From contig CM034532.1 in the NCBI GenBank assembly GCA_020002185.1, positions 25,584,100 through 25,648,099 of the forward strand: a stretch of 64,000 bases of DNA, in the 5' to 3' direction. This document shows positions 941 through 64,000 of the stretch, one piece after another (position 1 is the first letter of the stretch; every line of letters begins with the position of its first letter). Under the pieces are notes generated by a model. That model had not been told where the DNA came from, ran no database searches, and saw nothing but the letters and a program-made list of their open reading frames with translations. Source of the stretch: Paraescarpia echinospica (taxonomy: Eukaryota > Annelida > Polychaeta > Sabellida > Siboglinidae). Position numbers and translations under genes: made by a program.

Positions 941-943
941 GTT

Positions 944-38127: not shown

Positions 38128-38187
38128 ATGGCGAATCTTCAAGTTGTTTTGGCTGCTGGATGGATTCCGTTTGTAGTTTCTCTAGTG
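38128..38187 (+). CDS. LMBRD1: LMBRD1 exon 1
   Basis: Twenty codons, MANLQVVLAAGWIPFVVSLV, the start of the first membrane helix. The ATG has a good context (ACGAAAATGGCG: A at -3, G at +4) and is the first ATG in the GC-rich leader. Donor: GTG followed by GTAATAC, phase 0; a GT one codon earlier is possible but poorer. The next exon continues with LILIFSLLYVRRYQ, completing the helix. The N-terminus is shorter than in mammals. Confidence 0.85.
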
Positions 38188-38384
38188 GTAATACATGCTT
38201 GTCATCGCTTGATTTTTATATTTGTTTTTCACCTTGTTTTCGTAATTCTTGTGACATTATGTATACGATGAGTGTTATTGAATGGGGTTCGAATTAGTGT
38301 TTATAAAAGTATACACAGTCGCGATTTGTTGACAATCGCGATTTGTTGTCTATCACTTATCATGTTGACAACACTCAGTATCAC

Positions 38385-38700
38385 AGATTCAGAGTCACAA
38401 GAACAAAGAAGGTGGGCAGAAGAAGGATGACTGACCTGAGGAAAGAGGTTGGGATGGAATGCAGCCTAACAGGAAGACTGGCGAGAAGCCGGATGAGATG
38501 GGCAGGTCACTTGGCTGTTGGCAATGGATGCAGGCAAACTTGCAAAAAGCAGAGGCGGAACAACACAAAGGACGCAGGAGAAGGGGGAGGCGACAACTGA
38601 AATGGGAGGCCTGTGTGAGGAGGAACATGAGACGAACAGGTGAGGATGAGAGATGAAGAGAAGAGGCTGCTGACAGGAAGCTATGAAGAGGATGAATATG
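38385..38700 (+). mobile_element. LINE 3'-end relic in LMBRD1 intron 1
   Basis: Broken plus-strand frames read LTGRLARSRMRWAGHLA and, after a frameshift, KWEACVRRNMRRTGEDER. These are the typical C-terminal motifs of non-LTR reverse transcriptases (R-x-RWxGH...W.DCVRRDL...). Only the last ~100 codons survive. No flanking duplication was seen. Confidence 0.78.
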
Positions 38701-39562
38701 ACAAGAGTAGTTCAACAATACTATAGCATAGGCCTATAACATATATCTAACCCTCACCCCTGTACAGCGAACAAGGAGGAAGAACACATCCTACTAATTC
38801 TAAATAAATCTAGGCTAAAGCCTAAAACTACATTCAACACACATGTAAACTATCTGACAGGAGAATCCGGTAAGAATCTATACTAGAGTCTCCCAAATTT
38901 GTGCATAGCACAATTTGGTGCAGTGCAGTGTTGTATCATTTGTCTCAAACGTAAAACACCGAATGATGACATGACAATCAAGTTTCTTAACACTGGGATA
39001 TACCAACATCAACAATTGTAGCTGCCAGTAGCTGAGAAAAATTATACTGAATTGGACGAGGCACGAACTTAGTTAGGACACACAACGATAATGGACAAGT
39101 GACTCTAGATAATGAAGGAAAACCCTGGCAATAAACTGCTCGTGTGTCTAGGGTAAATGGAGGCAAATTAGTGACCTGGGGCATTAGTGACCACTTTTGA
39201 TAAAACCATTGAAACATGCACAACACAAATGTTGTACATTAGTATTTTGATAGCTTTGTGCGATAATGTGTTGGTGGTCAAACTGCTCATAAATCCTGTA
39301 TATAGGGTGGTCAATAATGTCCCGCAAGCTACTTAGCAACTTTGAGAAATGTTGAGCTACTAATTTTACAGAAGCAACTACCTGAGGAATGTTATCAGAA
39401 AGAAACTGATGACATCAACCACTTTGTAGACATCCTTAAATTTTAAATACTGAAAGGAGACACCTCGATATATGATTTTTCATTCCTTCAGTGACCAGTT
39501 AAGCTTTCACAGTATCCAGTAATTACCATAATATTAACACGATTTTTGTGTATGTGTTTCAG
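38701..39562. other. Remainder of LMBRD1 intron 1
   Basis: AT-rich intron without visible repeats; it ends in the acceptor TATGTGTTTCAG. Confidence 0.6.
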
Positions 39563-39739
39563 CTGATCTTGATCTTCTCATTGCTGTACGTGCGTCGCTA
39601 CCAGAATTACCATGACCGCGAACTGTGTTCAACAGTTGCCTCTGTCCTTGGCATCGCCGTCTCCCTCTTCACATGTGCTCTTGTACCCGTCGACATCTTC
39701 CTCGTCTCCTACATGAAAGACAGTGATGGACACTTTAAA
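39563..39739 (+). CDS. LMBRD1: LMBRD1 exon 2
   Basis: Fifty-nine codons, phase 0 at both ends. It covers the end of membrane helix 1 (LILIFSLLYV), a charged cytosolic turn (RRYQNYHDREL) and helix 2 (SVLGIAVSLFTCALVPVDIF), then LVSYMKDSDGHFK. The PVDIFLVSYMK block is a hallmark of LMBD1. Acceptor GTTTCAG, donor AAA followed by GTACGTAG. Neither junction is duplicated. Confidence 0.96.
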
Positions 39740-40526
39740 GTACGTAGTTTGTAATGTTTGCCTTTTGTATAATGTTATGTCTTCACCATATGTTTTTATA
39801 AATACCAGTGTCCACCCACCCATTGAGCAACAAACCAAATGTAGCAATGGTCACCAGTACGCTATTTTAAAGTTAAACTTGTTCCCATTACCATTTAATT
39901 TCTGTTGTTGCCGATGGGACAGTTCGTTCTTCGTCTGGTTCTTCTACATGTGGTGCGCTCACAAAGGGCCGATATAGGAAAAACCGTCTAAAGCTTTTGT
40001 TTGTCAGATAGATACACAGTAAGTAAATATTGCCTGTTTAATTATATTTCCAATAATGACTACTACTTATTGGCATTGCAACAAAATTAATGTAGTATTG
40101 CGTCACCACATTGATTAATAAAACTCAGTTTGTGATACCACATTATGGCATCGCATGCAGCAGATCATTTTAACTTAACTCCAATGGCACCACCTGGGGA
40201 ATGACTGACAACTCGCTATAACAGTAAGAAACTCAAAATAACTATCTGGTTTTTTTCAAATACATCACCAGTTGGCCAGTGGTCAAGTGGTAAGTGAATC
40301 CCTGCACCTGATAAGGGACAGACTTACAATTCTCCAAAGTTAGCATTAAATTAAGTGTGTTCTACATGCTGTCTGCTTCTAGTTTTTTATATGAAAAAAT
40401 TATAAATAAACATGCAGCTTCAAATTGTCACTGAGATTAATTTCAGTAGTATTAACTATAGAAAATCAGATGCTGTTGTTATTAATTTCATTGACTATAC
40501 AAACTAACCAGAGAAATGTGTTGTAG
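39740..40526. other. LMBRD1 intron 2 with a dispersed-repeat fragment
   Basis: It contains the reverse complement (40171-40215) of the fragment seen at 4066-4110 and a tRNA-like stretch TTGGCCAGTGGTCAAGTGGT near 40271 that may be a SINE head remnant. The remainder is AT-rich and unremarkable. Confidence 0.55.
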
Positions 40527-40590
40527 GATTGGGCAAAGGATGTGGAGAGTCGAGATACAATTGTGAATTCAGTGCTCTACATTTACTACG
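40527..40590 (+). CDS. LMBRD1: LMBRD1 exon 3
   Basis: Sixty-four nt, phase 0 in and phase 1 out: DWAKDVESRDTIVNSVLYIY then Y and one base. It matches the DWA...VLYxYY segment of LMBD1 that follows the first luminal stretch. Acceptor TTGTAG, donor TACTACG followed by GTGCGT. It joins exon 4 across the array-filled 7.9 kb intron 3. Confidence 0.93.
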
Positions 40591-40702
40591 GTGCGTATAC
40601 GTGGTGACAATATCAAGATATTCTACATTTAATTCTTTCAATAATGTTAAAATAATGGGATTTAAATCAAATAGGCAATGAGTGACTGTCATTCTTATAC
40701 TC

Positions 40703-41759
40703 ATGTGAATAGTAACTATTCCACTATGCTGTTGGGAGTAGTAACTATTCCACTATGCTGTTGTGAGTAGTAACTATTCCACTATGCTGCTGGGAGTAGT
40801 AACTATTCCACTATGCTGTTGGGAGTAGTAACTATTCCACTATGCTGTTGGGAGTAGTAACTATTCCACTATGCTGTTGGGAGTAGTAACTATTCCACTA
40901 TGCTGTTGTGAGTAGTAACTATTTCACTATGCTGTTATGAGTAGTAACTATTCCACTATGCTGTTGTGAGTAGTAACTATTCCAATATGCTGTTGTGAGT
41001 AGTAACTATTCCACTATGCTGTTGTGAGTAGTAACTATTCCACTATGCTGTTGGGAGTAGTAACTATTCAACTATGCTGTTGTGAGTAGTAACTATTCAA
41101 CTATGCTGTTGTGAGTAGTAACTATTCAACTATGCTGTTGTGAGTAGTAACTATTCCACTATGCTGTTGGGAGTAGTAACTACTCCACTATGCTGTTGGG
41201 AGTAGTAACTATTCCACTATGCTGTTGGGAGTAGTAACTATTCCACTATGCTGTTGTGAGTAGTAACTATTCCACTATGCTGTTGTGAGTAGTAACTATT
41301 CCACTATGCTGTTGTGAGTAGTAACTATTCCACTATGCTGTTGTGAGTAGTAACTATTCCACTATGCTGTTGTGAGTAGTAACTATTCCACTATGCTGTT
41401 GGGAGTAGTAACTATTCCACTATGCTGTTGTGAGTAGTAACTATTCCACTATGCTGTTGTGAGTAGTAACTATTCCACTATGCTGTTGGGAGTAGTAACT
41501 ATTCCACTATGCTGTTGTGAGTAGTAACTATTCCACTATGCTGTTGTGAGTAGTAACTATTCCACTATGCTGTTGTGAGTAGTAACTATTCCACTATGCT
41601 GTTGTGAGTAGTAACTATTCCACTATGCGGTTGTGAGTAGTAACTATTCCACTATGCTGTTGTGAGTAGTAACTATTCCACTATGCTGTTGTGAGTGGTA
41701 ACTATTCCACTATGCTGTTGTGAGTAGTAACTATTCCACTATGCTGTTGTGAGTAGTAA
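40703..41759. repeat. 29 bp minisatellite in intron 3
   Basis: About 36 copies of GTAGTAACTATTCCACTATG plus CTGTTGTGA (or GGGA). It ends abruptly at the pogo-like element at 41762, and degenerate relatives resume after it (42895-43330), so the transposon inserted within an older, larger repeat zone. Confidence 0.97.
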
Positions 41760-41761
41760 TA

Positions 41762-43344: not shown

Positions 43345-46300
43345 ATCAAGGGTGTCTTCTTGCTGTGATGTACACTTGTCCGATACTGTTCCTCTTCTTG
43401 CAGTGATATACACCTGTCTGATGCTGTTCTTCTTGCAGTGATGTACACCTGTCTGATGCTGTTCTTCTTCTTGCAGTGATGTACACCTGTCTGATACTGT
43501 TCTTCTTGCAGTGATGTACACCTGTCTGATACTGTTCCTCTTCTTGCAGTGATGTACACCTGTCTGATACTGTTCCTCTTCTTGCAGTGATGTACACTTG
43601 TCTGATACTGTTCCTCTTCTTGCAGTGATGTACACTTGTCTGATACTGTTCTTCTTCTTGCAGTGATGTACACTTGTCTGATACTGTTCCTCTTCTTGCA
43701 GTGATGTACACTTGTCTGATACTGTTCTTCTTCTTGCAGTGATGTACACTTGTCTGATACTGTTCCTCTTCTTGCAGTGATGTACACTTGTCTGATGCTG
43801 TACTTCTTCTTGCAGTGATGTACACTTGTCTGATGCTGTTCTTCTTCTTGCAGTGATGTACACCTGTCTGATACTGTTCCTCTTCTTGCAGTGATATACA
43901 CCTGTCTGATGCTATTCTTCTTGCAGTGATATACACCTGTCTGATGCTGTTCTTCTTGCAGTGATGTACACCTGTCTGATGCTGTTCTTCTTCTTGCAGT
44001 GATGTACACCTGTCTGATACTGTTCTTCTTCTTGCAGTGATGTACACCTGTCTGATACTGTTCTTCTTCTTGCAGTGATGTACACCTGTCTGATACTGTT
44101 CCTCTTCTTGCAGTGATGTACACCTGTCTGATACTGTTCCTCTTCTTGCAGTGATGTACACTTGTCTGATACTGTTCCTCTTCTTGCAGTGATGTACACT
44201 TGTCTGATACTGTTCCTCTTCTTGCAGTGATGTACACTTGTCTGATACTGTTCCTCTTCTTGCAGTGATGTACACTTGTCTGATACTGTTCCTCTTCTTG
44301 CAGTGATGTACACTTGTCTGATACTGTTCTTCTTCTTGCAGTGATGTACACTTGTCTGATACTGTTCCTCTTCTTGCAGTGATGTACACTTGTCTGATAC
44401 TGTTCTTCTTCTTGCAGTGATGTACACTTGTCTGATACTGTTCTTCTTCTTGCAGTGATGTACACTTGTCTGATACTGTTCCTCTTCTTGCAGTGATGTA
44501 CACTTGTCTGATACTGTTCCTCTTCTTGCAGTGATGTACACTTGTCTGATACTGTTCCTCTTCTTGCAGTGATGTACACTTGTCTGATACTGTTCCTCTT
44601 CTTGCAGTGATGTACACTTGTCTGATGCTGTACTTCTTCTTGCAGTGATGTACACTTGTCTGATGCTGTTCTTCTTCTTGCAGTGATGTACACCTGTCTG
44701 ATACTGTTCCTCTTCTTGTCTTGCAGTGATGTACACTTGTCAGATACTGTTCCTCTTCTTGTCTTGCAGTGATGTATACTTGTCTGATACTGTTCCTCTT
44801 CTTGCTGCGATGTACACTTGTCAGATACTGTTCCTCTTCTTGCAGCGATGTACACCTGTCTGATACTGTTCCTCTTCTTGCAGTGATGTACATGTGTCTG
44901 ATACTGTTCCTCTTTTTGCAATGATGTACACTTGTCAGATACTGTTCCTCTTCTTGCAGTGATGTACACCTGTCTGATACTGTTCCTCTTCTTGCTGTGA
45001 TGTACACCTGTCTGATACTGTTCCTCTTCTTGCAGTGATGTACACCTGTCTGATACTGTTCCTCTTCTTGCAGTGATGTACACTTGTCAGATACTATTCC
45101 TCTTCTTGCAGTGATGTACACCTGTCTGATACTGTTCCTCTTCTTGCAGTGATGTACACTTGTCAGATACTGTTCCTCTTCTTGTCTTGCAGTGATGTAC
45201 ACTTGTCTGATACTGTTCCTCTTCTTGTCTTGCAGTGATGTACACTTGTCTGATACTGTTCCTCTTCTTGCTGTGATGTACACCTGTATGATACTGTTCC
45301 TCTTCTTGCAGTGATGTACACTTGTCAGATATTGTTCCTCTTCTTGCAGTGATGTACACTTGTCTGATAATGTTCCTCTTCTTGCAGTGATGTACACCTG
45401 TCTGATACTGTTCCTCTTCTTGCAGTGATGTACATGTGTCTGATACTGTTCCTCTTTTTGCAATGATGTACACTTGTCAGATACTGTTCCTCTTCTTGCA
45501 GTGATGTACACCTGTCTGATACTGTTCCTCTTCTTGCTGTGATGTACACCTGTTTGATACTGTTCCACTTCTTGCAGTGATGTACACCTGTCTGATACTG
45601 TTCCCCTTCTTGCAGTGATGTACACCTGTATGATACTGTTCCTCTTCTTGCAGTGATGTACACTTGTCAGATACTATTCCTCTTCTTGCAGTGATGTACA
45701 CCTGTCTGATACTGTTCCTCTTCTTGCAGTGATGTACACTTGTCAGATACTGTTCCTCTTCTTGTCTTGCAGTGATGTACACTTGTCTGATACTGTTCCT
45801 CTTCTTGTCTTGCAGTGATGTACACTTGTCTGATACTGTTCCTCTTCTTGCTGTGATGTACACCTGTATGATACTGTTCCTCTTCTTGCAGTGATGTACA
45901 CTTGTCAGATATTGTTCCTCTTCTTGCAGTGATGTACACTTGTCTGATACTGTTCCTCTTCTTGCAGTGATGTACACTTGTCTGATACTGTTCCTCTTCT
46001 TGCAGTGATATACACCTGTCTGATGCTGTTCTTCTTGCAGTGATGTACACCTGTCTGATGCTGTTCTTCTTCTTGCAGTGATGTACACCTGTCTGATGCT
46101 GTTCTTCTTCTTGCAGTGATGTACACCTGTCTGATACTGTTCTTCTTGCAGTGATGTACACCTGTCTGATACTGTTCCTCTTCTTGCAGTGATGTACACC
46201 TGTCTGATACTGTTCCTCTTCTTGCAGTGATGTACACTTGTCTGATACTGTTCCTCTTCTTGCAGTGATGTACACTTGTCTGATACTGTTCCTCTTCTTG

Positions 46301-48487
46301 CAGTGATGTACACTTGTCTGATACTGTTCCTCTTCTTGCAGTGATGTACACTTGTCTGATACTGTTCCTCTTCTTGCAGTGATGTACACTTGTCTGATAC
46401 TGTTCTTCTTCTTGCAGTGATGTACACTTGTCTGATACTGTTCTTCTTCTTGCAGTGATGTACACTTGTCTGATACTGTTCCTCTTCTTGCAGTGATGTA
46501 CACTTGTCTGATGATGTACTTCTTCTTGCAGTGATGTACACTTGTCTGATGCTGTTCTTCTTCTTGCAGTGATGTACACCTGTCTGATACTGTTCCTCTT
46601 CTTGCAGTGATATACACCTGTCTGATGCTGTTCTTCTTGCAGTGATATACACCTGTCTGATGCTGTTCTTCTTGCAGTGATGTACACCTGTCTGATGCTG
46701 TTCTTCTTCTTGCAGTGATGTACACCTGTCTGATACTGTTCTTCTTCTTGCAGTGATGTACACCTGTCTGATACTTTTCTTCTTCTTGCAGTGATGTACA
46801 CCTGTCTGATACTGTTCCTCTTCTTGCAGTGATGTACACCTGTCTGATACTGTTCCTCTTCGTGCAGTGATGTACACTTGTCTGATACTGTTCCTCTTCT
46901 TGCAGTGATGTACACTTGTCTGATACTGTTCCTCTTCTTGCAGTGATGTACACTTGTCTGATACTGTTCCTCTTCTTGCAGTGATGTACACTTGTCTGAT
47001 ACTGTTCTTCTTCTTGCAGTGATATACACTTGTCTGATACTGTTCCTCTTCTTGCAGTGATGTACACTTGTCTGATACTGTTCTTCTTCTTGCAGTGATG
47101 TACACTTGTCTGATACTGTTCTTCTTCTTGCAGTGATGTACACTTGTCTGATACTGTTCCTCTTCTTGCAGTGATGTACACTTGTCTGATACTGTTCCTC
47201 TTCTTGCAGTGATGTACACTTGTCTGATACTGTTCTTCTTCTTGCAGTGATGTACACTTGTCTGATACTGTTCCTCTTCTTGCAGTGATGTACACTTGTC
47301 TGATACTGTTCCTCTTCTTGCAGTGATGTACACTTGTCTGATACTGTTCCTCTTCTTGCAGTGATGTACACTTGTCTGATGCTGTACTTCTTCTTGCAGT
47401 GATGTACACTTGTCTGATGCTGTTCTTCTTCTTGCAGTGATGTACACCTGTCTGATACTGTTCCTCTTCTTGTCTTGCAGTGATGTACACTTGTCAGATA
47501 CTGTTCCTCTTCTTGTCTTGCAGTGATGTACACTTGTCAGATACTGTTCCTCTTCTTGCTGTGATGTACACTTGTCTGATACTGTTCCTCTTCTTGCTGC
47601 GATGTACACTTGTCAGATACTGTTCCTCTTCTTGCAGCGATGTACACCTGTCTGATACTGTTCCTCTTCTTGCAGTGATGTACATGTGTCTGATACTGTT
47701 CCTCTTTTTGCAATGATGTACACTTGTCTGATACTGTTCCTCTTCTTGTCTTGCTGTGATGTACACTTGTCTGATACTGTTCCTCTTCTTGCAGTGATGT
47801 ACACCTGTCTGATACTGTTCCTCTTCTTGCTGTGATGTACACTTGCCTGATACTCTTCCTCTTCTTGCAGTGATGTACACTTGTCTGATACTCTTCCTCT
47901 TGCAGTGATATACACTTGTCTGATACTGTTCCTCTTCTTGCTGTGATGTACACCAGTCTGATACTGTTCCTCTTCTTGCTGTGATGTACACCTGTCTGAT
48001 ACTGTTCCTCTTCTTGCAGTGATGTACACTTGTCAGATACTGTTCCTCTTCTTGCAGTGATGTACACTTGTCTGATACTGTTCCTCTTCTTGTCTTGCTG
48101 TGATGTACACTTGTCTGATACTGTTCCTCTTCTTGCAGTGATGTACACTTGTCTGATATTGTTCCTCTTCTTGCAGTGATGTACACTTGTCTGATACTGT
48201 TCCTCTTCTTGTCTTGCTGTGATGTACACTTGTCTGATACTGTTCCTCTTCTTGCAGTGGTGTACACCTGTCTGATACTCTTCCTCTTCTTGTCTTGCTG
48301 TGATGTACACTTGTCTGATACTGTTCCTCTTCTTGCAGTGATGTACACTTGTCTGATACTCTTCCTCTTGCAGTGATATACACTTGTCTGATACCGTTCC
48401 TCTTCTTGCAGTGATGTACACCTGTCTGATGCTCTTCCTCTTCTTGCAGTGATGTACACCTGTCTGATACTCTTCCTCTTCTTGCAG
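43345..48487 (+). repeat. 38 bp array made of the exon 4 splice acceptor and start of exon 4
   Basis: Roughly 130 copies of TGATGTACACCTGTCTGATA followed by CTGTTCCTCTTCTTGCAG. The first 34 nt of each unit equal the first 34 nt of exon 4 (with 1-2 changes); only GCAG is intronic. The coding pyrimidines (CTGTTCCTCTTCTT) act as a polypyrimidine tract before the next AG, so every unit is a plausible acceptor. Some units carry TGTCT insertions or CTGTGATG variants, and blocks of variants recur (for example 44690-45100 with 45660-45900, and 43440-44800 with 46010-47460), showing higher-order duplication. Minus-strand frames up to 759 codons are by-products. Confidence 0.97.
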
Positions 48488-48582
48488 TGATGTACACCTG
48501 TCTGATGCTCTTCCTCTTCTTCATTCTACCTCTCGCTTACTTCTACTACGAAGAGCAAGATGAGGAAGTCAGCTCTATCGGG
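48488..48582 (+). CDS. LMBRD1: LMBRD1 exon 4
   Basis: Ninety-five nt, phase 1 in and phase 0 out: with the G of exon 3 it reads VMYTCLMLFLFFILPLAYFY then YEEQDEEVSSIG. This is a membrane helix followed by the conserved FYYEE-acidic cytosolic segment of LMBD1. The acceptor is the last of the ~130 CTTCTTGCAG sites; the exon is distinguished by CTTCTTCATTCTACC where array units have CTTCTTGCAG. Using the unit just upstream would read CTC TTC TTG CAG TGA, a stop. Donor ATCGGG followed by GTAGGC. Confidence 0.93.
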
Positions 48583-51926: not shown

Positions 51927-51994
51927 AGGTGTTGCAATGCAATGAAGTATACAGTTGTCTTCATCATATTTGCATTGGCTTTGCTTCTTGTTGG
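51927..51994 (+). CDS. LMBRD1: LMBRD1 exon 5
   Basis: Sixty-eight nt, phase 0 in and phase 2 out: RCCNAMKYTVVFIIFALALL then LVG. It is a membrane helix preceded by a K-Y-T motif that LMBD1 proteins share (LKYTLGF-type). Acceptor CATGTTTCAG, donor GTTGG followed by GTAAGTGCC. It is flanked on both sides by arrays derived from its own junctions, leaving only 68 bp of unique coding sequence between about 5 kb of repeats. Confidence 0.92.
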
Positions 51995-54251
51995 GTAAGT
52001 GCCATAAACCTCCAGGAGACTTGTGTTGTTCTGTGTAAGCATACAGCACCAGGAGACTTGTGTTGTTCTCTGTAAGCATACACCTCCAGGAGACTTGTGT
52101 TGTTCTCTGTAAGCATACACCTCCAGGAGACTTGTGTTGTTCTCTGTAAGCATACACCTCCAGGAGACTTGTGTTGTTCTCTGTAAGCATTCACCTCCAG
52201 GAGACTTGTGTTGTTCTCTGTAAGCATACAGCACCAGGAGACTTGTGTTGTTCTCTGTAAGCATTCACCTCCAGGAGACTTGTGTTGTTCTCTGTAAGCC
52301 TACAGCACCAGGAGACTTGTGTTGTTCTCTGTAAGCATACACCTCCAGGAGACTTGTGTTGTTCTCTGTAAGCATACACCTCCAGGAGACTTGTGTTGTT
52401 CTCTGTAAGCATACACCTCCAGGAGACTTGTGTTGTTCTCTGTAAGCATTCACCTCCAGGAGACTTGTGTTGTTCTCTGTAAGCATACAGCACCAGGAGA
52501 CTTGTGTTGTTCTCTGTAAGCATTCACCTCCAGGAGACTTGTGTTGTTCTCTGTAAGCATACACCTCCAGGAGACTTGTGTTGTTCTCTGTAAGCATACA
52601 GCACCAGGAGACTTGTGTTGTTCTCTGTAAGCATTCACCTCCAGGAGACTTGTGTTGTTCTCCGTAAGCATACACCTCCAGGAGACTTGTGTTGTTCTCT
52701 GTAAGCCTACAGTACCAGGAGACTTGTGTTGTTCTCTGTAAGCATTCGCCTCCAGGAGACTTGTGTTGTTCTCTGTAAGCATACACCTCCAGTAGACTTG
52801 TGTTATTCTCTGTAAGCATACAGCACCAGGAGACTTGTGTTGTTCTCTGTAAGCATTCACCTCCAGGAGACTTGTGTTGTTCTCCGTAAGCATACACCTC
52901 CAGGAGACTTGTGTTGTTCTCCGTAAGCATACACCTCCAGGAGACTTGTGTTGTTCTCTGTAAGCCTACAGTACCAGGAGACTTGTATTGTTCTCTGTAA
53001 GCATTCGCCTCCAGGAGACTTGTGTTGTTCTCTGTAAGCATACACCTCCAGTAGACTTGTGTTATTCTCTGTAAGCATACAGCACCAGGAGACTTGTGTT
53101 GTTCTGTGTAAGCATACAGCACCAGGAGACTTGTATTGTTCTCTGTAAGCATACACCTCCAGGAGACTTGTGTTGTTCTCTGTAAGCATACAGCACCAGG
53201 AGACTTGTGTTGTTCTCTGTAAGCATTCACCTCCAGGAGACTTGTGTTGTTCTCTGTAAGCATACACCTCCAGTAGACTTGTGTTATTCTCTGTAAGCAT
53301 TCACCTCCAGGAGACTTGTGTTATTCTCTGTAAGCATACAGCACCAGGAGACTTGTATTGTTCTGTGTAAGCATACAGCACCAGGAGACTTGTATTGTTC
53401 TGTGTAAGCATACAGCACCAGGAGACTTGTGTTTTTCTCTGTAAGCATACACCTCCAGGAGACTTGTGTTGTTCTCTGTAAGCATACAGCACCAGGAGAC
53501 TTGTGTTGTTCTCTGTAAGCATTCACCTCCAGGAGACTTGTGTTGTTCTCCGTAAGCATACACCTCCAGGAGACTTGTGTTGTTCTCTGTAAGCATACAC
53601 CTCCAGGAGACTTGTGTTGTTCTCTGTAAGCCTACAGTACCAGGAGACTTGTGTTGTTCTCTGTAAGCATACACCTCCAGTAGACTTGTGTTATTCTCTG
53701 TAAGCATTCACCTCCAGGAGACTTGTGTTATTCTCTGTAAGCATACAGCACCAGGAGACTTGTATTGTTCTGTGTAAGCATACAGCACCAGGAGACTTGT
53801 ATTGTTCTGTGTAAGCATACAGCACCAGGAGACTTGTATTGTTCTGTGTAAGCATACAGCACCAGGAGACTTGTGTTGTTCTCTGTAAGCATACACCTCC
53901 AGGAGACTTGTGTTGTTCTCTGTAAGCATACAGCACCAGGAGACTTGTGTTGTTCTCTGTAAGCATTCACCTCCAGGAGACTTGTGTTGTTCTCCGTAAG
54001 CATACACCTCCAGTAGACTTGTGTTATTCTCTGTAAGCATACAGCACCAGGAGACTTGTGTTGTTCTCTGTAAGCATTCACCTCCAGGAGACTTGTGTTG
54101 TTCTCCGTAAGCATACACCTCCAGGAGACTTGTGTTGTTCTCTGTAAGCATACAGCACCAGGAGACTTGTGTTGTACTGTGTAAGCATATAGCACCAGGA
54201 GACTTGTGTTGTTCTCTGTAAGCACACAGCTCCAGGAGACTTGTGTTGCAG
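51995..54251 (+). repeat. 37 bp array filling intron 5, units start with a splice donor
   Basis: The whole intron is about 61 tandem copies of GTAAGCATACACCTCCAGGA followed by GACTTGTGTTGTTCTCT. The first unit is the true donor (GTAAGTGCCATAAACCTCCA) and the last unit ends as the acceptor (GGAGACTTGTGTTGCAG). Every unit thus begins with a GTAAG donor and contains CAG. Variants: CAGCACC or CACCTCC, CATTC or CATAC. Minus-strand frames such as repeats of LTENNTSLLEV are by-products. Reading into the first unit from exon 5 gives GGG TAA, an immediate stop. Confidence 0.97.
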
Positions 54252-54340
54252 TATGTTCCTGCCGCTGCGACCTTTCACCCCCAGCAATGGCACTGAGTGG
54301 GAGGACCTGAAGAACATCTTCGCAGACCTCAACAGTAATC
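54252..54340 (+). CDS. LMBRD1: LMBRD1 exon 6
   Basis: Eighty-nine nt, phase 2 in and phase 1 out: with exon 5 it reads GMFLPLRPFTPSNGTEWEDL then KNIFADLNSN. The NGT sequon in an N-x-T-EW context matches the glycosylated luminal loop of LMBD1, and the following helix with KxIFADL is also conserved. Acceptor TTGTGTTGCAG, donor AATC followed by GTGAGTTC. Confidence 0.95.
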
Positions 54341-54461: not shown

Positions 54462-57400
54462 TGTGGATGGCTTGCATGGAAGCCATTCATGTCAGTCACA
54501 GCCATTATTGCATAGAAGCCATACATGTCAATCACAGCCATTATTGCATGGAAGCCATTCATGTCAGTCACAGCCATTATTGCATGGAATCCATTCATGT
54601 CAGTCACAACCATTATTGCATGGAAGCCATTCATTTCATGTCAGTCACAGCCATTATTGCATGGAAGCCATTCATGTCAGTCACAGCCATTATTGCATGG
54701 AAGCCATTCATGTCAGTCACAGCCATTATGGCATGGAAGCCATTCATGTCAGTCACAGCCATTATTGCATGGAAGCCATTCATGTCAGTCACAGCCATTA
54801 TTGCATGGAAGCCATTCATGTCAGTCACAGCCATTATTGCATGGAAGCCATTCATGTCAGTCTCAGCCATTATTGCATGGAAGCCATTCATGTCAGTCAC
54901 AGCCATTATTGCATGGAAGCCATTCATGTCAGTCACAGCCATTATTGCATGGAAGCCATTCATGTCAGTCACAGCCATTATTGCATGGAAGCCATTCATG
55001 TCAGTCACAGCCATTATTGCATGGAAGCCATTCAGTGTCATGTTCACAGCCATTATTGCATGGAAGCCATTCGTGTCAGTCACAGCCATTATTGCATGGA
55101 AGCCATTCGTGTCAATCACAGCCATTATTGCATGGAAGCCATTCGTGTCAGTCACAGCCATTATTGCATGGAAGCCATTCTTGTCAATCACAGCCATTAT
55201 GGCATGGAAGCCATTCATGTCAGTCACTGCCATTATTGCATGGAAGCCATTCATGTCAGTCACAGCGATTATTGCATGGAAGCCATTCATGTCAGTCACA
55301 GCCATTATTGCATGGAAGCCATTCATGTCAGTCACAGCCATTATTGCATGGAAGCCATTCATGTCGGTGACAGCCATTATTGCATGGAAGCCATTTATGT
55401 CAGTCACAGCCATTACTGTATGGAAGCCATTCATGTCAGTCACAGCCATTATTGCATGGAAGCCATTCATGTCAGTCACAGCCATTATTGCATGGAAGCC
55501 ATTGATGTCAGTCACAGCCATTATTGCATGGAAGCCATTCATGTCAGTCACAGCCATTATGGCATGGAAGCCATTCATGTCAGTCACAGCCATTATTGCA
55601 TGGAAGCCATTCATGTCAGTCACAGCCATTAATGCATGGAAGCCATTCATGTCAGTCACAGCCATTATTGCATGGAAGCCATTCATGTCAGTCACAGCCA
55701 TTATTGTATGGAAGTCATTCATGTCAGTCACAGACATTATTGCATGGAAGCCATTCATGTCAATCACAGCCATTATTGCATGGAAGCCATTCATGTCAGT
55801 CACAGCCATTATTGTATGGAAGCCATTCATGTCAATCATGTCAATCACAGCCATTATTGCATGGAAGCCATTCATGTCAGTCACAGCCATTATTGCATGG
55901 AAGCCATTCATGTCAGTCACAGCATTATTGCATGGAAGCCATTCATGTCAATCACAGCCATTATTGCATGGAAGCCATTCATGTCAGTCACAGCCATTAT
56001 TGTATGGAAGCCATTCATGTCAATCACAGCCATTATTGCATGGAAGCCATTCATGTCAGTCACAGCCATTATTGCATGGAAGCCATTCATGTCAGTCACA
56101 GCCATTATTGCATGGAAGCCATTCAAGTCAGTCACAGCCATTATGGCATGGAAGCCATTCATGTCAGTCACAGCCATTATTGCATGGAAGCCATTCATGT
56201 CAGTCACAGCCATTATTGCATGGAAGCCATTCATGTCAGTCACAGCCATTATTGCATGGAAACCATTCATGTCAGTCACAGCCATTATTGCATGGAAGCC
56301 ATTCATGTCAGTCACAGCCATTATTGCATGGGAGCCATTCATGTCAGTCTCAGCCATTATTGCATGGGAGCCATTCATGTCAGTCACAGCCATTATTGCA
56401 TGGAAGCCATTCATGTCAATCACAGCCATTATGGCATGGAAGCCATTCATGTCAATCACAGACATTATGGCATGGAAGCCATTCATGTCAATCACAGCCA
56501 TTATTGCATGGAAGCCATTCATGTCAGTCACAGCCATTATTGCATGGAAGCCATTCATGTCAATCACAGCCATTATTGCATGGAAGCCATTCATGTCAGT
56601 CACAGCCATTATTGCATGGAAGCCATTCATGTCAGTCACAGCCATTATGGCATGGAAGCCATTCATGGAAGCCATTCATGTCAATCACAGCCATTATTGC
56701 ATGGAAGCCATTCATGTCAGTCACAGCCATTATTGCATGGAAGCCATTCATGTCAATCACAGCCATTATTGCATGGAAGCCATTCATGTCAGTCACAGCC
56801 ATTATTGCATGGAAGCCATTCATGTCAATCACAGCCATTATTGCATGGAAGCCATTCATGTCAATCACAGCCATTATGGCATGGAAACCATTCATGTCAG
56901 TCACAGCCATTATTGCATGGAAGCCATTCATGTCAATCACAGCCATTATTGCATGGAAGCCATTCATGTCAATCACAGCCATTATTGCATGGAAGCCATT
57001 CATGTCAGTCACAGCCATTATTGCATGGAAGCCATTCATGTCAGTCACAGCCATTATTGCATGGAAGCCATTCATGTCAGTCACAGCCATTATTGCATGG
57101 AAGCCATTCATGTCAGTCACAGCCATTATTGCATGGAAGCCATTGATGTCAGTCACAGCCATTATTGCATGGAAGCCATTCATGTCAGTCACAGCCATTA
57201 TGGCATGGAAGCCATTCATGTCAGTCACAGCCATTATTGCATGGAAGCCATTCATGTCAGTCACAGCCATTATTGCATGGAAGCCATTCATGTCAGTCAC
57301 AGCCATTATTGCATGGAAGCCATTCATGTCAGTCACAGCCATTATTGTATGGAAGTCATTCATGTCAGTCACAGACATTATTGCATGGAAGCCATTCATG

Positions 57401-58312
57401 TCAATCACAGCCATTATTGCATGGAAGCCATTCATGTCAGTCACAGCCATTATTGCATGGAAGCCATTCATGTCAATCACAGCCATTATTGCATGGAAGC
57501 CATTCATGTCAGTCACAGCCATTATTGCATGGAAGCCATTCATGTCAATCACAGCCATTATTGCATGGAAGCCATTCATGTCAATCACAGCCATTATAGC
57601 ATGGAAGCCATTCATGTCAATCACAGCCATTATTGCATGGAAGCCATTCATGTCAATCACAGCCATTATGGCATGGAAGCCATTCATGTCAATCACAGCC
57701 ATTATTGCATGGAAGCCATTCATGTCAGTCACAGCCATTATTGCATGGGAGCCATTCATGTCAGTCACAGCCATTATTGCATGGAAGCCAATCATGTCAG
57801 TCCAGCCATTATTGCATGGAAGCCATTCATGTCAATCACAACCATTATTGCATGGAAGCCATTCATGTCAATCACAGCCATTATTGCATGGAAGCCATTC
57901 ATGTCAGTCACAGCCATTATTGCATGGAAGCCATTCATGTCAGTCACAGCCATTATTGCATGGGAGCCATTCATGTCAGTCACAGCCATTATTGCATGGA
58001 AGCCATTCATGTCAATCACAGCCATTATGGCATGGAAGCCATTCATGTCAGTCACAGCCATTATGGCATGGAAGCCATTCATGTCAGTCACAGCCATTAT
58101 TGCATGGAAGCCATTCATGTCAGACACAGCCATTATTGCATGGAAGCCATTCATGTCAATCACAGCCATTATTGCATGGAAGCCATTCATGTCAGTCACA
58201 GCCATTATTGCATGGAAGCCATTCATGTCAGTCACAGCCATTATTGCATGGAAGCCATTCATGTCAATCACAACCATTATTGCATGGAAGCCATTCATGT
58301 CAATCACAGTGA
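54462..58312. repeat. 36 bp minisatellite filling intron 6
   Basis: About 107 copies of CATTCATGTCAGTCACAGCC followed by ATTATTGCATGGAAGC. The unit is a multiple of three and stop-free in most frames, giving frames up to 1287 codons on plus and 429 on minus. Blocks share variants (GTATGGAAGTCATT near 55707 and 57347), so segmental duplication of about 1.64 kb is present. Unlike its neighbours this array does not contain a splice junction of the gene. Confidence 0.97.
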
Positions 58313-58755: not shown

Positions 58756-58829
58756 ATGGTGAGGATGCCATTTCATTTGCTGTGAGCGCAATGACAACCG
58801 CCGGCTGGCTCGCTCTCATTGTCTACACG
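58756..58829 (+). CDS. LMBRD1: LMBRD1 exon 7
   Basis: Seventy-four nt, phase 1 in and phase 0 out: H then GEDAISFAVSAMTTAGWLAL and IVYT. It is a membrane helix equivalent to the LAALSFSISSLTLIG-type helix of LMBD1. Donor ACG followed by GTGCGTACC. The intronic side of this donor is the founder of a 35 bp array. Confidence 0.94.
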
Positions 58830-59165
58830 GTGCGTACCACCCTTGACTGATTCCTAGCTGGCTGGTATGTACCACCATTGACTGATTCCTAGCTGGCTGG
58901 TATGTACCACCCTTGACTGATTCCTAGCTGGCTGGTATTTACCACCCTTGACTGATTCCTAGCTGGCTGGTATGTACCACCCTTGACTGATTCCTAGCTG
59001 GCTGGTATGTACCACCCTTGACTGATTCCTAGCTAGCTGGTATGTAACACCCTTGACTGATTCCTAGCTGGCTGGTATGTACTATCTTTGACTGATTTTT
59101 GCTGTCTGGTATGTACCTCTCTTGACTGATTCTTGTTGCCAGGTATGTACCATTCTTGACTGATT
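58830..59165 (+). repeat. 35 bp array derived from the exon 7 donor
   Basis: About nine copies of GTATGTACCACCCTTGACTG followed by ATTCCTAGCTGGCTG. The true donor is the first unit (GTGCGTACCACCCTTGACTG); later units have GTATGT, an arguably stronger donor core. Units degenerate to the right. Reading from exon 7 into the first unit gives GAC TGA, a stop. Confidence 0.94.
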
Positions 59166-59254
59166 CCCAGATATCTACAATGTTCTTCAAAACTGTCGAA
59201 GATTAAAGATTGAAATTAAATTGAAGATTAAAGCAACATAAGGGATCATCTCAG

Positions 59255-59695: not shown

Positions 59696-59699
59696 TCTA

Positions 59700-60157
59700 A
59701 GAAGCGTTTGTGTGAAGTGAGTTGTTGCCTTGTCTCGGGCATACGGCATGAGTGCATGGCCCATCGACCTGATGTGTTTGTGTGAAGTGAGTTGTTGCCT
59801 TGTCTCAGGCATACAGCATGAGTGCATGGCCCATCAACCTGATGTGTTTGTGTGAAGTGAGTTGTTGCTTTGTCTCAGGCGTACAGCATGAGTGCATAGC
59901 CCATCGACCTGATGTGTTTGTGTGAAGTGAGTTGTTGCCTTGTCTCAGTCTTAGGCATGAGTGCATGGCCCATCGACCTGATGTGTTTGTGTGAAGTGAG
60001 TTGTTGCCTTGTCTCAGGCATACGGCATGAGTGCATGGCCCATCGACCTGATGTGTTTGTGTGAAGTGAGTTGTTGCCTTGTCTCAGGCACACGGCATGA
60101 GTGCATGGCCCATCAACCTGATGTGTTTGTGTGAAGTGAGTTGTGGCCTTGTCTCAG
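59700..60157 (+). repeat. ~70 bp array of the exon 8 acceptor plus 35 nt of exon 8
   Basis: About 6.5 copies of GTGTTTGTGTGAAGTGAGTT, GTTGCCTTGTCTCAG and then 35 exon-8-like bases GCATACGGCATGAGTGCATG with GCCCATCGACCTGAT. The true exon 8 diverges from the unit after CTGAT (CCGAGG instead of GTGTTT). In the array GT follows immediately, so each unit formally looks like a 35 nt microexon between CAG and GT. Using the nearest upstream acceptor adds 70 nt and leads to a TAG at the end of exon 8. Confidence 0.95.
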
Positions 60158-60283
60158 GCATACGGCATGAGTGCATGGCCCATCGACCTGATCCGAGGTT
60201 CTCGCAGTGTAGCTGTAGAGAGGGTGGACACAGAACAGGCCCTGGAGGAGACACGGGCACGCATACTTGGCATCACAAGTAGG
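60158..60283 (+). CDS. LMBRD1: LMBRD1 exon 8
   Basis: Forty-two codons, phase 0 at both ends: AYGMSAWPIDLIRGSRSVAV, then ERVDTEQALEETRARILGIT and SR. The AYGMSAxPxxLIRG-S motif is one of the most conserved parts of LMBD1, at the membrane-cytosol boundary, and starts the long cytosolic loop. Acceptor TTGTCTCAG, donor AGTAGG followed by GTGAGTAG. Both junctions are tandemly copied into the flanking introns. Confidence 0.96.
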
Positions 60284-61010
60284 GTGAGTAGTCTCTACAG
60301 GGTGTGTGAGTAATTGTCTCTCTATTGGGTGTATGAGAAGTTGTCTCTCTACAAGGTGTGTGAGTAACTGTCTCTCTACAGGGTGTATGAGTAGTTGTCT
60401 CTACAGGGTGTATAAGCAGTTGTCTCTCTACAGGGTGTATGAGTAGTTGTCTCTACAGGGTGCATAAGCAGTTGTCTCTCTACAGGGTGTATGAGTAGTT
60501 GTCTCTTTATTGGATGTATGAGTAACTGTCTCTCTACAGGGTGTATGAGTAGTTGTCTCTCTATTGGGTGTATGAGTAACTGTCTCTACAGGGTGTGTGA
60601 GTAGTTGTTTGTCTACAGGGTGTATGAGTAGCTGTCTCTACAGGGTGTATGAGTAGTTGTCTCTACAGGGTGTATGAGTAGTTGTCTCTCTACAGGGTGT
60701 ATGAGTAGTCTCTCTACAGGGTGTATGAGTAGTTGTCTCTACAGGGTGTATGAGTAGTTGTCTCTCTACATGGTGTATGAGTAGTTGTCTCTACAGGGTG
60801 TATGAGTAGTTGTCTCTCTACAGGGTGTATGAGTAGTCTCTCTACAGGGTGTATGAGAGTTGTCTCTCTACAGGGTGCATGAGTAGTTGTCTCTACAGGG
60901 TGTGTGTGTAGTTGTCTCTCTACAGGGTGTGTGAGTAGTTGTCTCTCTACAGGGTGTATGACTAGTCTCTCTACAGGGTGTATGAGTAATTGCCTGTCTA
61001 TGTGATGAGT
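60284..61010 (+). repeat. ~27 bp array derived from the exon 8 donor
   Basis: About 27 copies of ACAGGGTGTATGAGTAGTTG plus TCTCTCT. The first unit is the real donor region (GTGAGTAGTCTCTACAGGGT); copies with GGTGTGTGAGTAG keep a GTGAGT donor, while most have GTATGAG. Reading into the intron from exon 8 gives GTG TGT GAG TAA. Units vary in length (TCTC or TCTCTC). Confidence 0.93.
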
Positions 61011-61713
61011 GAGTAGATGTATCAGTTGTTGTGTCAACTTATTAAATGATTAATATCAGTGAACAATGTCATGTTATATTAATCTTACCGCTGTGTAGTT
61101 TACCACTGTATGTGTGCTTGACCATGTGTTATTCCAGTTAGAATGATTTCATTTATCACACAGTTTACCGTTACTGCCAGCTTGTGTAGTACGTGTGTAC
61201 TTGACCCTTTTAGTTGTACATATACATAGATTATATACACAATTTTTTCTTCATTTCTTATATATGATACAATTGCCATATTGCTCAATTTTATCTGAAT
61301 GATCCAGTAAGTTTTATTGTTATACTAGCTGAGTTACTTGGCGTTGCCCGGGGGAGAAAAGGCAGTCATATGTACTAGACACTCCAAACCCATTCCAAAT
61401 CTTTCCAGCCTACCCGCATTATTAAATTGTAACTGGTCACTGGCCTAATTGTTAGGACAACCTTTCGCTAGAAATCGCACATGGTCACCCGTCTAATTGA
61501 TGTAACCAGCAACAGCGGATGCTGGGTTGAAAATAGTTTCAGCCCGATACATCAAAAACTAACGGAGATGTGGGTGCACAAACAAACAGAAAACAAAATG
61601 TTTTATAATATAGACAACTATACTGTCTAGTATATATATATATATATATATATATATGAACAATATCTTTAAAGTTTCTTACTGTTAAATTTTAGCTGCT
61701 TACTGTTTCACAG
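61011..61713. other. Rest of intron 8, with a possible mobile-element end
   Basis: Near 61325-61640 lies TACTAGCTGAGTTACTTGGC followed by GTTGCCCGGGGGAG, a motif I associate with dispersed element ends in many animal genomes, followed by about 250 bp of moderately GC-rich DNA and a (TA)n tract at 61631-61657. No coding part. The acceptor of exon 9 is TTACTGTTTCACAG. Confidence 0.45.
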
Positions 61714-61928
61714 TACACTCAACGTTCTTCTCGAATGTCATCACATGACCGCCAACGACTCGAACAACTCGAAGACCACGAACAACTGATTGAAAGACGA
61801 CAGAGCCACCTAGAGGCCAGAAGTTGCATGGATCGATGTGGCACCTTATTGCATCCGTTTAAGATCACTGTGGCTGTGTTGTTTCTTCTCATGGCCACTC
61901 TTGTGATCGTCTCACTTGTACTTACTAA
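61714..61928 (+). CDS. LMBRD1: LMBRD1 exon 9
   Basis: Seventy-one codons plus two bases, phase 0 in and phase 2 out. It begins YTQRSSRMSSHDRQRLEQLE and contains a basic/acidic coiled-coil-like stretch (DHEQLIERRQSHLEA), then CGTLLHPFKITVAVLFLLMA and the helix end LVIVSLVLT. This matches the cytosolic loop with its R-D-K/R-x-L-xQLE pattern and the next membrane helix of LMBD1. Donor ACTAA followed by GTCAGTGC; joining to exon 10 makes AAC (N) IDKILHSLG, as in the family. The last 19 exonic bases are part of the 47 bp array unit. Confidence 0.94.
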
Positions 61929-62756
61929 GTCAGTGCTCACTGCATTCACTGCAACATCTCACTCGTACTCACTAAGTCAGTGCTCACAGCATTCACTGCA
62001 ACATCTCACTCGTACTCACTAAGTCAGTGCTCACTGCATTCACTGCAACATCTCACTCGTACTCACTAAGTCAGTGCTCACTGCATTCACTGCAACATCT
62101 CACTCGTACTCACTAAGTCAGTGCTCACTGCATTCACTGCAACATCTCACTCGTACTCACTAAGTCAGTGCTCACTGCATTCACTGCAACATCTCACTCG
62201 TACTCACTAAGTCAGTGCTCACTGCATTCACTGCAACATCTCACTCGTACTCACTAAGTCAGTGCTCACTGCATTCACTGCAACATCTCACTCGTACTCA
62301 CTAAGTCAGTGCTCACTGCATTCACTGCAACATCTCACTCGTACTCACTAAGTCAGTGCTCACTGCATTCACTGCAACATCTCACTCGTACTCACTAAGT
62401 CAGTGCTCACTGCATTCACTGCAACATCTCACTCGTACTCACTAAGTCAGTGCTCACTGCATTCACTGCAACATCTCACTCGTACTCACTAAGTCAGTGC
62501 TCACTGCATTCACTGCAACATCTCACTCGTACTCACTAAGTCAGTGCTCACTGCATTCACTGCAACATCTCACTCGTACTCACTAAGTCAGTCCTCACTG
62601 CATTCACTGCAACATCTCACTCGTACTCACTAAGTCAATGCTCACTGCATTCACTGCCAACATCTCACTTGTACTCACTAACTCAGTGTTCTCTGCATTC
62701 ACTGCAAAATCTCACTTGTATTCACTAAGTCGGTGCTCACTGCATTCACTGCAACC
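61910..62756 (+). repeat. 47 bp array derived from the exon 9 donor
   Basis: About 18 near-identical copies of TCTCACTCGTACTCACTAAG followed by TCAGTGCTCACTGCATTCACTGCAACA in two parts; the first copy is exon 9 itself (TCTCACTTGTACTTACTAA) with its donor GTCAGT. The unit includes 19 exonic bases and the donor. Only the exon copy carries TTG and CTTACT; array copies share TCG and CTCACT, so the array was homogenised after it formed. The next donor shifts the frame and the third is preceded by TAA. Confidence 0.96.
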
Positions 62757-62994
62757 TTGTAATGTTGAATTGACATATTTGATTGAAGTTATTATTACTA
62801 AATGTAATTCCCAAATAAAGTCAACTTCTAAGAATAGTGCAAACAAAATGCTTAAAATGTACCATTACTGGAGAAATTCTGTATTTGGTCGAAATTACTA
62901 CTTGTAGTGCCACCTGTTGAGTGTTGATGAAATACTGTGGATGTGTTGAATTGGGAAAATTTATGTAGTGCCAGCATGTAACTAGTTACTTTAC
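62757..62994. other. Middle of intron 9, nothing seen
   Basis: AT-rich unique sequence between the donor array and the acceptor duplication. Confidence 0.55.
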
Positions 62995-63118
62995 CATTGC
63001 GTGTCTCGGTTGTAAAGCCAGTGAGTGGTGTTCACTTTCACATGACTCCCTTGCAGCATTGAGTGTCTCGGTTGTAAAGCCAGTGAGTGGTGTTCACTTT
63101 CACATGACTCTGTTGCAG
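62995..63118 (+). repeat. Two-copy 62 bp duplication of the exon 10 acceptor
   Basis: CATTGAGTGTCTCGGTTGTA through CATGACTCCCTTGCAG is repeated as CATTGAG... through CTGTTGCAG, and the real exon 10 then starts CATTGACAAG. Each unit starts with the first five or six bases of exon 10 and ends with TTGCAG, so the acceptor was duplicated with its exon edge. The upstream acceptor would shift the frame (62 nt). Confidence 0.94.
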
Positions 63119-63221
63119 CATTGACAAGATCCTGCACTCTCTTGGCCCTAAGATGGGCTATGCCCTGCCAGTGAGGAAACTGCCCAACCCTATTGACATA
63201 GTGCTCGTGTACGCACAGCGG
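63119..63221 (+). CDS. LMBRD1: LMBRD1 exon 10
   Basis: One hundred and three nt, phase 2 in and phase 0 out: IDKILHSLGPKMGYALPVRK, then LPNPIDIVLVYAQR. It corresponds to the luminal LDKALHSAG...LSNPLNMLLPLLQ segment of LMBD1. Donor CGG followed by GTGGGT. Acceptor and donor are each duplicated into the neighbouring intron. Confidence 0.94.
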
Positions 63222-63285
63222 GTGGGTACACACATAGTGCTCATGTACGCACAATGGGCGGGTACACACATAGTGCTTATGTATA
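63196..63285 (+). repeat. 36 bp duplication of the exon 10 donor
   Basis: ACATAGTGCTCGTGTACGCA with CAGCGG and the donor GTGGGTACAC is followed by ACATAGTGCTCATGTACGCA with CAATGG and GCGGGTACAC, then a third partial copy. The duplicate contains 26 exonic bases and a GC in place of GT. The extension is 36 nt, in frame and stop-free (12 residues), unlike the other decoys. Confidence 0.93.
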
Positions 63286-63389
63286 GGTATTAGTCATGTC
63301 TGTGTGTTGTTTTCCATGTGTTAGCCATTTCCACATTTTTACATTGTGCTGCAGGCATTAACCATGTATATAATAGTATGTTTTATGCT

Positions 63390-63802
63390 CCAGGTGTTAG
63401 TCATGTTTGTGTGTTATGCTCCAGGTGTCATGTCTGTGTTGTGCTCCATGTGTTAGTCATGTTTGTATTGTGTTTCATGTGTTTGTCATGTCCATGTGTT
63501 GTGGTATTGGTGTTAGACATATGCATATATTGTGCTCCAATATTAATTAGTTGTAAGTGCTGTGTTCCAGGCATTAGCCATGTGTGTCGTGCTCCAGGTG
63601 TTAGCCATGTGTGTCGTGCTCCAGGTGTTAGTCATGTGTGTCATGCTCCAGGTGTTAGTCGTGTGTGTGTGTGTGTGTGTGTGTCGTGCTCCAGATGTTA
63701 GTCATGTATTGTGCTCCAGATGTTAGTCATGTGTGTCGTGCTCCAGGTGTTAGTCATGTGTATAATGTTCCAGGTGTTAGTCATGTGTGTGTTGTGCTGC
63801 AG
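63390..63802 (+). repeat. ~27 bp array derived from the exon 11 acceptor
   Basis: About 15 degenerate copies of GTGTTAGTCATGTGTGTCGT then GCTCCAG. Exon 11 begins GTGTTCCCG after GCTGCAG, so each unit copies the acceptor and the first five exonic bases. A (TG)n stretch interrupts it at 63660-63683. The nearest upstream acceptor adds 29 nt and leads to GGT TAG in exon 11. Confidence 0.9.
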
Positions 63803-63907
63803 GTGTTCCCGCTGGACTACATCCTCCTCTCTGGGTTAGTGCTCTATTTCTTCCTCTGTTCAATGGCCGGCATCCAACGCCTCGGCATCTGGTTCTGCTG
63901 CATCCGC
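63803..63907 (+). CDS. LMBRD1: LMBRD1 exon 11
   Basis: Thirty-five codons, phase 0 at both ends: VFPLDYILLSGLVLYFFLCS, then MAGIQRLGIWFCCIR. VFPLDYIL and SMAGIxxxGIWF are diagnostic for LMBD1 and form a membrane helix and its cytosolic exit. Donor CGC followed by GTGAGTAC. The C-terminal part of the protein lies to the right of the window. Confidence 0.96.
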
Positions 63908-64000
63908 GTGAGTACATCATGACTTGTTGTTATCTGACTGAGTACATCATGACTTGTTGTTATCTGACTGAGTACATCGTGACTTGTTGTTATCTGGATG
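63908..64000 (+). repeat. 30 bp array starting at the exon 11 donor (runs off the edge)
   Basis: About three copies of GAGTACATCATGACTTGTTG plus TTATCTGACT, the first being the real donor GTGAGTACATC. The later copies have CTGAGTAC, so the GT has been lost in them. The array continues past the right edge. Confidence 0.88.

What the first reader, a model, noticed from the sequence alone, without database searches (positions are those of the whole stretch)
38128..64000. Minisatellites of LMBRD1 are tandem copies of the gene's own splice junctions
Of 21 splice junctions of LMBRD1 in the window, 11 have tandem copies next to them: acceptors of exons 4, 5, 8, 10, 11 and donors of exons 5, 7, 8, 9, 10, 11 (the exon 6 acceptor is also the last unit of the intron 5 array). 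The units differ completely in sequence and length (about 27 to 82 bp), so this is not one element spreading; each array was born independently at a junction. Where exon sequence is included, copies extend into the intron side only and the coding exon stays single. I know of no described class of repeats defined this way. It could mean that splice junctions are preferred sites of tandem duplication in this lineage (for example through R-loops or nicking during splicing), or that repeats born inside exons are removed by selection while those at the edges survive.
Basis: seen in the sequence. Interest (0 to 1): 0.92.

Follow-up and report, generated by a model that had tools for sequence, protein, structure and literature searches.

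The report
Splice-site minisatellites in a tubeworm gene
In a gene of what is likely a deep-sea tubeworm, long tandem-repeat arrays contain or lie right beside the gene's own splice sites; they are likely ordinary repeat births that straddled an exon edge and would be tolerated because the exon itself stays single, a kind of repeat already described in lancelets as "mirages".

Summary
The anatomy is real. LMBRD1 has 15 exons and 28 junctions; 11 of 19 scored arrays touch 12 of them. At seven, the junction itself is copied (225 copies, all on the intron side, 204 keeping AG or GT); at five the array only abuts. None of the 204 decoys would keep the frame open.

The claim of an undescribed class fails: amphioxus "mirages" are the same thing (PMC3087553, PMC3902484, passages). 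New are the host, likely a vestimentiferan tubeworm, and the array sizes.

"Junctions are preferred" is not supported generally. Under a fair null, five other Pfam families (173 junctions) show 5 of 48 arrays at a junction against 4.6 expected (P 0.50). LMBRD1 (11 of 19 against 3.5, P 5e-5) exceeds it, and so does its LMBR1-family relative (4 of 6 against 0.8, P 0.002 after hand correction, 0.20 before). No array lies wholly inside an annotated exon (0 of 73, about 9 expected). Best reading: frequent intronic minisatellite birth, removal from exon interiors, tolerance at exon edges.

The parts
38128..38187 (+). LMBRD1 exon 1 (coding part)
39563..39739 (+). LMBRD1 exon 2
40527..40590 (+). LMBRD1 exon 3
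43355..48521 (+). Array, 38-bp unit x135, covering the exon 4 acceptor; 134 junction copies, 116 with AG, median 34 exon bases per copy
48488..48582 (+). LMBRD1 exon 4
49111..51927 (+). Array, 82-bp unit x34, ending at the exon 5 acceptor; 66 junction copies, all with AG, 12-13 exon bases
51927..51994 (+). LMBRD1 exon 5
52003..54248 (+). Array, 37-bp unit x61, fills intron 5 from 9 bp after the exon 5 donor to 4 bp before exon 6; no strict junction copy
54252..54340 (+). LMBRD1 exon 6
54472..58309 (+). Array, 36-bp unit, intron 6, not at a junction
58756..58829 (+). LMBRD1 exon 7
58834..59167 (+). Array, 35-bp unit x9.6, starts 5 bp after the exon 7 donor; abuts, no strict junction copy
59706..60192 (+). 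Array, 70-bp unit x7, covering the exon 8 acceptor; 5 copies, 4 with AG, 35 exon bases
60158..60283 (+). LMBRD1 exon 8
60292..61000 (+). Array, 27/52-bp unit, starts 9 bp after the exon 8 donor; abuts, no strict junction copy
61714..61928 (+). LMBRD1 exon 9
61910..62755 (+). Array, 47-bp unit x18, covering the exon 9 donor; 17 copies, 16 with GT, 19 exon bases; the genome search found the unit only here
62995..63124 (+). Two-copy 62-bp repeat covering the exon 10 acceptor; one junction copy, 6 exon bases
63119..63221 (+). LMBRD1 exon 10
63196..63283 (+). 36-bp unit x2.4 covering the exon 10 donor; one copy, with GC instead of GT, 26 exon bases
63374..63807 (+). Related arrays in two stretches (63374-63466 and 63561-63807), the second covering the exon 11 acceptor; one strict copy, 5 exon bases
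63803..63907 (+). LMBRD1 exon 11 (gene continues beyond the window to exon 15)
63908..64000 (+). 30-bp array starting 1 bp after the exon 11 donor; runs on to 64736 (in L086); abuts, no strict junction copy
938..1116 (-). Donor side of a minus-strand exon, likely SLC4A11-like (last exon base 1116), with one strict further copy of the junction and, read by eye, partial copies of the exon end

Best explanation
Eleven of the 19 scored tandem arrays in this LMBRD1 gene, likely of a vestimentiferan tubeworm, contain or lie within 10 bases of one of its own splice junctions, and they likely arose as ordinary minisatellite duplications that happened to straddle an exon edge and would be tolerated because splicing is predicted to use only the outermost copy. 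Shown for LMBRD1: the 225 junction copies lie only on the intron side, 204 keep AG or GT, and none of these 204 would keep the reading frame open if used. Shown in a sample: no array lies wholly inside an annotated exon, and in five other gene families arrays touch junctions about as often as random seeds would. Inferred: a duplication of a segment spanning a junction leaves one complete exon (at the 5'-most donor or the 3'-most acceptor), so it is not removed; later slippage or unequal exchange expands it into the intron. Inferred from general knowledge of splicing: the outermost pair is chosen by exon definition, since an acceptor copy inside an array has no donor within exon distance, and a donor copy no acceptor. 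These are the 'mirage' minisatellites of amphioxus, here likely in an annelid.
For: Gene model complete and conserved. Junction copies 225, all on the intron side, 204 canonical; 0 of 204 frame-preserving. Fair null: 5 of 48 arrays in five other families against 4.6 expected, P 0.50. Arrays wholly inside an exon: 0 of 73 with about 9 expected (0 of 48 with 6.3 expected in the other families, P 0.002). Junction copies also in other genes: the LMBR1-family relative, Cpn60_TCP1 genes at L060 and L059, a kinesin at L090, an Aldedh gene at L105 and the SLC4A11-like exon. The donor 9 unit was found only at its locus. Same class described in amphioxus (passages).
Against: LMBRD1 exceeds the fair null (11 of 19 against 3.5, P 5e-5) and so does the LMBR1-family relative (4 of 6 against 0.79, P 0.002), which random placement does not explain. 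But LMBRD1 was chosen for its pattern, and the relative's junctions were corrected by hand after the arrays had been seen (2 of 6 against 0.85, P 0.20 before). The sample is small (173 junctions), and its exons come from profile hits, so exons carrying an internal repeat would be under-detected; in LMBRD1 alone the exon-interior deficit is not significant (1.8 expected, P 0.16). Outside LMBRD1 not every copy lies on the intron side: 5 of 6 at the relative's A7 and 6 of 7 at L060. No RNA data: use of the outermost site rests on protein conservation. In human IFI6, repeat units do serve as alternative donors (PMC4526556, passage).
Confidence: 0.65

Rival explanations
1. Splice junctions, at least in some genes, are preferred birth sites of tandem duplication, for example through transcription- or splicing-coupled nicks or R-loops.
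For: LMBRD1 and its LMBR1-family relative exceed the fair null; Cpn60_TCP1 genes lean the same way (3 of 19 against 1.2, P 0.11; at 25 bp 4 of 19 against 1.5, P 0.05). All sampled genes but LMBRD1: 9 of 54 against 5.4, P 0.07 (3 bp: P 0.03; 25 bp: P 0.14).
Against: AMP-binding 0 of 7, myosin 0 of 16, kinesin 1 of 4 and Aldedh 1 of 2 arrays, none significantly above expectation; the five families together 5 of 48 against 4.6.
Confidence: 0.22
2. The arrays are nascent introns: tandem duplication of a segment with AG and GT creates introns, as proposed for amphioxus globins.
For: Intron 5 consists almost wholly of one array, from 9 bp after the donor to 4 bp before the acceptor; the model is in print (PMC3087553, passages).
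Against: Other introns with junction arrays also hold unique sequence, and the exon map already gives a full conserved protein. The age of the introns was not tested.
Confidence: 0.04
3. The arrays are kept because they do something, for example as splice-site decoys that slow or regulate splicing.
For: 204 intact decoy sites in LMBRD1, with median scores like or above the real site's at A4, A5, A8, D9 and A10.
Against: Units are unrelated between junctions, and most sampled junctions have no array near them (6 of 147 predicted junctions within 25 bp). No comparison across species was possible.
Confidence: 0.05
4. Assembly artefact.
For: Arrays are hard to assemble; no reads were available here.
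Against: Many unrelated arrays in several genes and chromosomes, with diverged units; boundary-spanning repeats are independently reported in amphioxus, there with re-sequencing for PGBD5.
Confidence: 0.04

Closest known systems
'Mirage' minisatellites of amphioxus (Adh3, globins BflGb6 and BflGb9, troponin C, PGBD5)
   Same: Tandem duplications of an exon-intron boundary, donor or acceptor side, units of 10 to about 160 bp, many but not all copies with AG or GT, regular splicing reported not disturbed (PMC3087553 and PMC3902484, passages read)
   Different: Chordate; 3 and 6 repeat units in the two BflGb6 haplotypes. Here likely an annelid, up to 134 copies at a junction and arrays at 12 of 28 junctions of one gene
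Human IFI6 (6-16) minisatellite with multiple splice donors (Turri 1995; seen only as a reference in PMC4526556, paper not held)
   Same: Minisatellite whose units carry donor sites
   Different: Human; repeat units are reported as used donors, which is untested here
Intron gain by duplication of AG/GT segments (Rogers, as cited in PMC3087553)
   Same: Duplication involving splice signals
   Different: Creates a new intron; here the arrays lengthen introns of an intact conserved gene

Membership tests
mirage minisatellites | Tandem repeat unit spans an exon-intron boundary | tested here: met
   7 of 28 LMBRD1 junctions copied, with 5-35 exon bases; the other 5 array junctions only abut
mirage minisatellites | Both donors and acceptors can be affected | tested here: met
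   A4, A5, A8, A10, A11 and D9, D10
mirage minisatellites | Many but not all copies keep AG or GT | tested here: met
   204 of 225 copies
mirage minisatellites | Regular splicing of the transcript is not disturbed | tested here: inconclusive
   Protein is intact and conserved; no RNA data
mirage minisatellites | Length instability, also somatic | not testable with these tools
   No individuals or reads; one duplicate pair of loci (98.5% identical) differs by a unit at a non-junction array (L065 2.1 copies, L066 3.1)
IFI6-type multiple-donor minisatellite | Repeat donors are used in transcripts | not testable with these tools
   No RNA data; 0 of 204 LMBRD1 decoys would keep the frame open

The most novel reading that the evidence does not exclude
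In some genes of this tubeworm, splice junctions are true hotspots of tandem duplication, so that a gene's repeats print its own exon map.
Probability: 0.2. Interest if true: 0.75.

Novelty: new member of a known kind. Interest (0 to 1): 0.42.

Why it matters
It likely carries mirage minisatellites from lancelets to an annelid, and it makes a natural splicing test: some two hundred intact decoy sites in one gene that splicing would have to pass over. It also gives a fair null by which 'repeats at splice sites' can be judged genome-wide.

Tried and rejected
A narrow null (array within 10 bp of a junction) was replaced, because a seed may straddle a junction; this raised the expectation from 0.8 to 3.5. 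A point-wise copy test was rejected as length-biased: at score 20, 10.8% of intron control points (451 of 4184) have a near copy, 4.0% of junctions (7 of 173). The distance histogram from raw profile-hit ends was replaced by predicted splice sites (19 of 20 right on ten LMBRD1 exons). A pooled version of the fair null gave 7 of 54 against 3.75, P 0.07, before the hand correction. COX1 for species identity: no match in the assembly. Pfam scan of eight open frames of 107 listed in the window's first 38 kb: only a reverse transcriptase. The unit search for the exon 4 array did not complete.

Rows dropped before the counts: L016 (contig end) and eight near-duplicate loci L017, L018, L019, L020, L023, L055, L066, L071; one search also dropped L003. 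Tandem repeats under period 15 or score 100 are not counted (21 arrays in LMBRD1 at the looser cut-off, 19 at this one). Of 120 listed proteins, six were used for exon mapping.
Full report
What it is. The window lies in a 1.084-Gb genome with 14 large sequences (C1-C14, 56-97 Mb). By identity the LMBRD1 protein is closest to Ridgeia piscesae (92% over 60% of the query) and Lamellibrachia satsuma (80% over 53%); the other hits among the 120 listed are at 52% or below. So the host is very likely a vestimentiferan tubeworm. Size and the 14 large sequences fit Paraescarpia echinospica (1.09 Gb, 14 pseudochromosomes; PMC8476170, passages), but 3111 contigs do not match the published counts, so the species is not proven.

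Gene model. Eleven exons in the window and four beyond it (L086) give 535 residues and a stop, with GT-AG introns throughout. Residues 8-392 align with human LMBD1 (342 bits). Ridgeia's predicted protein (380 residues) covers exons 6-15 and, compared by eye, has no insertion at any junction. The Lamellibrachia protein covers exons 7-15 and carries a different stretch in place of exon 13. Both are predictions. Introns total 27.4 kb, of which about 72% is tandem array.

Junction arrays. Twelve of 28 junctions lie within 10 bp of an array. At seven the junction itself is copied: A4 134 copies (116 AG), A5 66 (66 AG), A8 5 (4 AG), D9 17 (16 GT), A10 1 (AG), D10 1 (GC), A11 1 (AG), together 225 with 204 canonical, all on the intron side. 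At five (D5, A6, D7, D8, D11) the array begins or ends 1-9 bp away and no strict copy is found. By a simple splice matrix the LMBRD1 copies score by median like the real site (A4, A5, D9), above it (A8, A10) or slightly below (A11). In the LMBR1-family relative, A6 and A7 copies score like the real site, D6 copies much lower (2.2 against 7.3), A8 copies lower (4.6 against 5.4). The kinesin copies (L090) score like the real site; the copies at L060, L059, L105 and the SLC4A11-like exon score lower. None of the 204 LMBRD1 decoys would keep the frame open.

Is it more than chance? The narrow null gives 0.8 expected of 21 arrays. The fair null drops a seed one unit long at random into collapsed sequence, rejects seeds wholly in exons, and counts a seed that overlaps or comes within 10 bp of a junction. 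LMBRD1: 11 of 19 against 3.5, P 5e-5 (3 bp: 8 against 3.1, P 0.006; 25 bp: 11 against 4.4, P 0.001). LMBR1-family relative on the same chromosome: 4 of 6 against 0.79, P 0.002; before I corrected its junctions by hand, having seen the arrays, it was 2 of 6 against 0.85, P 0.20. Cpn60_TCP1: 3 of 19 against 1.2, P 0.11. AMP-binding 0 of 7, myosin 0 of 16, kinesin 1 of 4, Aldedh 1 of 2. These five families together: 5 of 48 arrays, 173 junctions, 4.6 expected, P 0.50 (3 bp: P 0.34; 25 bp: 6 against 6.1, P 0.60). All but LMBRD1: 9 of 54 against 5.4, P 0.07 (3 bp: P 0.03; 25 bp: 10 against 7.1, P 0.14). Junctions are therefore not shown to be preferred in general.

Exon interiors. No array lies wholly inside an annotated exon: 0 of 19 in LMBRD1 (1.8 expected, P 0.16), 0 of 6 in its relative (0.8, P 0.44), 0 of 48 in the rest (6.3 expected, P 0.002). 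Exons found by profile hits may under-represent exons with internal repeats.

Other examples. Kinesin L090: the last exon bases and donor repeated (66-bp unit x4.6, three strict copies). Aldedh L105: acceptor with a 32-bp unit x8.8 (eight copies, five canonical). Cpn60_TCP1 L060: acceptor, 54-bp unit (seven copies, three canonical, six on the intron side). L059: two further copies of the exon end and donor. At L045 an array starts 2 bp after the donor but no strict copy was found. In the window itself, a minus-strand exon ending at 1116, weakly like SLC4A11 (E 0.13), has one strict copy of its donor junction and, read by eye, further partial copies of the exon end.

Known kind. [quoted passage not shown] PMC3902484 (passage) adds troponin C and PGBD5. 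Human IFI6 is said to use two downstream repeat units as donors (PMC4526556, passage). For tubeworms, the passages that I saw in PMC9921365, PMC10192322 and PMC8476170 do not describe such arrays; in none of the three does the word minisatellite or satellite occur where I searched for it. My ten paper searches, some of them with capped lists, showed no report outside amphioxus and IFI6; this does not show that none exists.

Mechanism. Shown: place, copy number, one-sidedness in LMBRD1, intact decoys, no frame-preserving decoy, absence from annotated exon interiors. Inferred: birth by local duplication, survival because one exon copy stays whole, expansion by slippage or unequal exchange, choice of the outermost site by exon definition (general knowledge of splicing, no call). 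Unexplained: why the two LMBR1-family genes exceed the null.

Noticed in passing
window 938-1326, minus strand: Likely SLC4A11-like exon whose donor junction is repeated downstream, a second gene with the same feature in this window.
   Followed up: partly
window 23635-26059, minus strand: Reverse transcriptase open frame (RVT_1 at 23635-24648) and neighbouring frames that look like a non-LTR retrotransposon; a further RT-like fragment at 22413-23088 on the plus strand is my reading, the frame 22663-23088 had no Pfam match.
   Followed up: partly
window 10556-17756: Very long 48-bp array (about 150 copies in two adjoining stretches).
   Followed up: no
G000:C2:39149145-39162504 (L001-L008): LMBR1-family relative with junction copies at A6, D6, A7 and A8; the A7 unit also occurs about 1 kb upstream.
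   Followed up: yes
L065 and L066: Near-identical duplicate loci (98.5%) that differ in copy number of a 29-bp array (2.1 and 3.1).
   Followed up: no
G000: No COX1 match, so the mitochondrial genome seems absent from the assembly.
   Followed up: no
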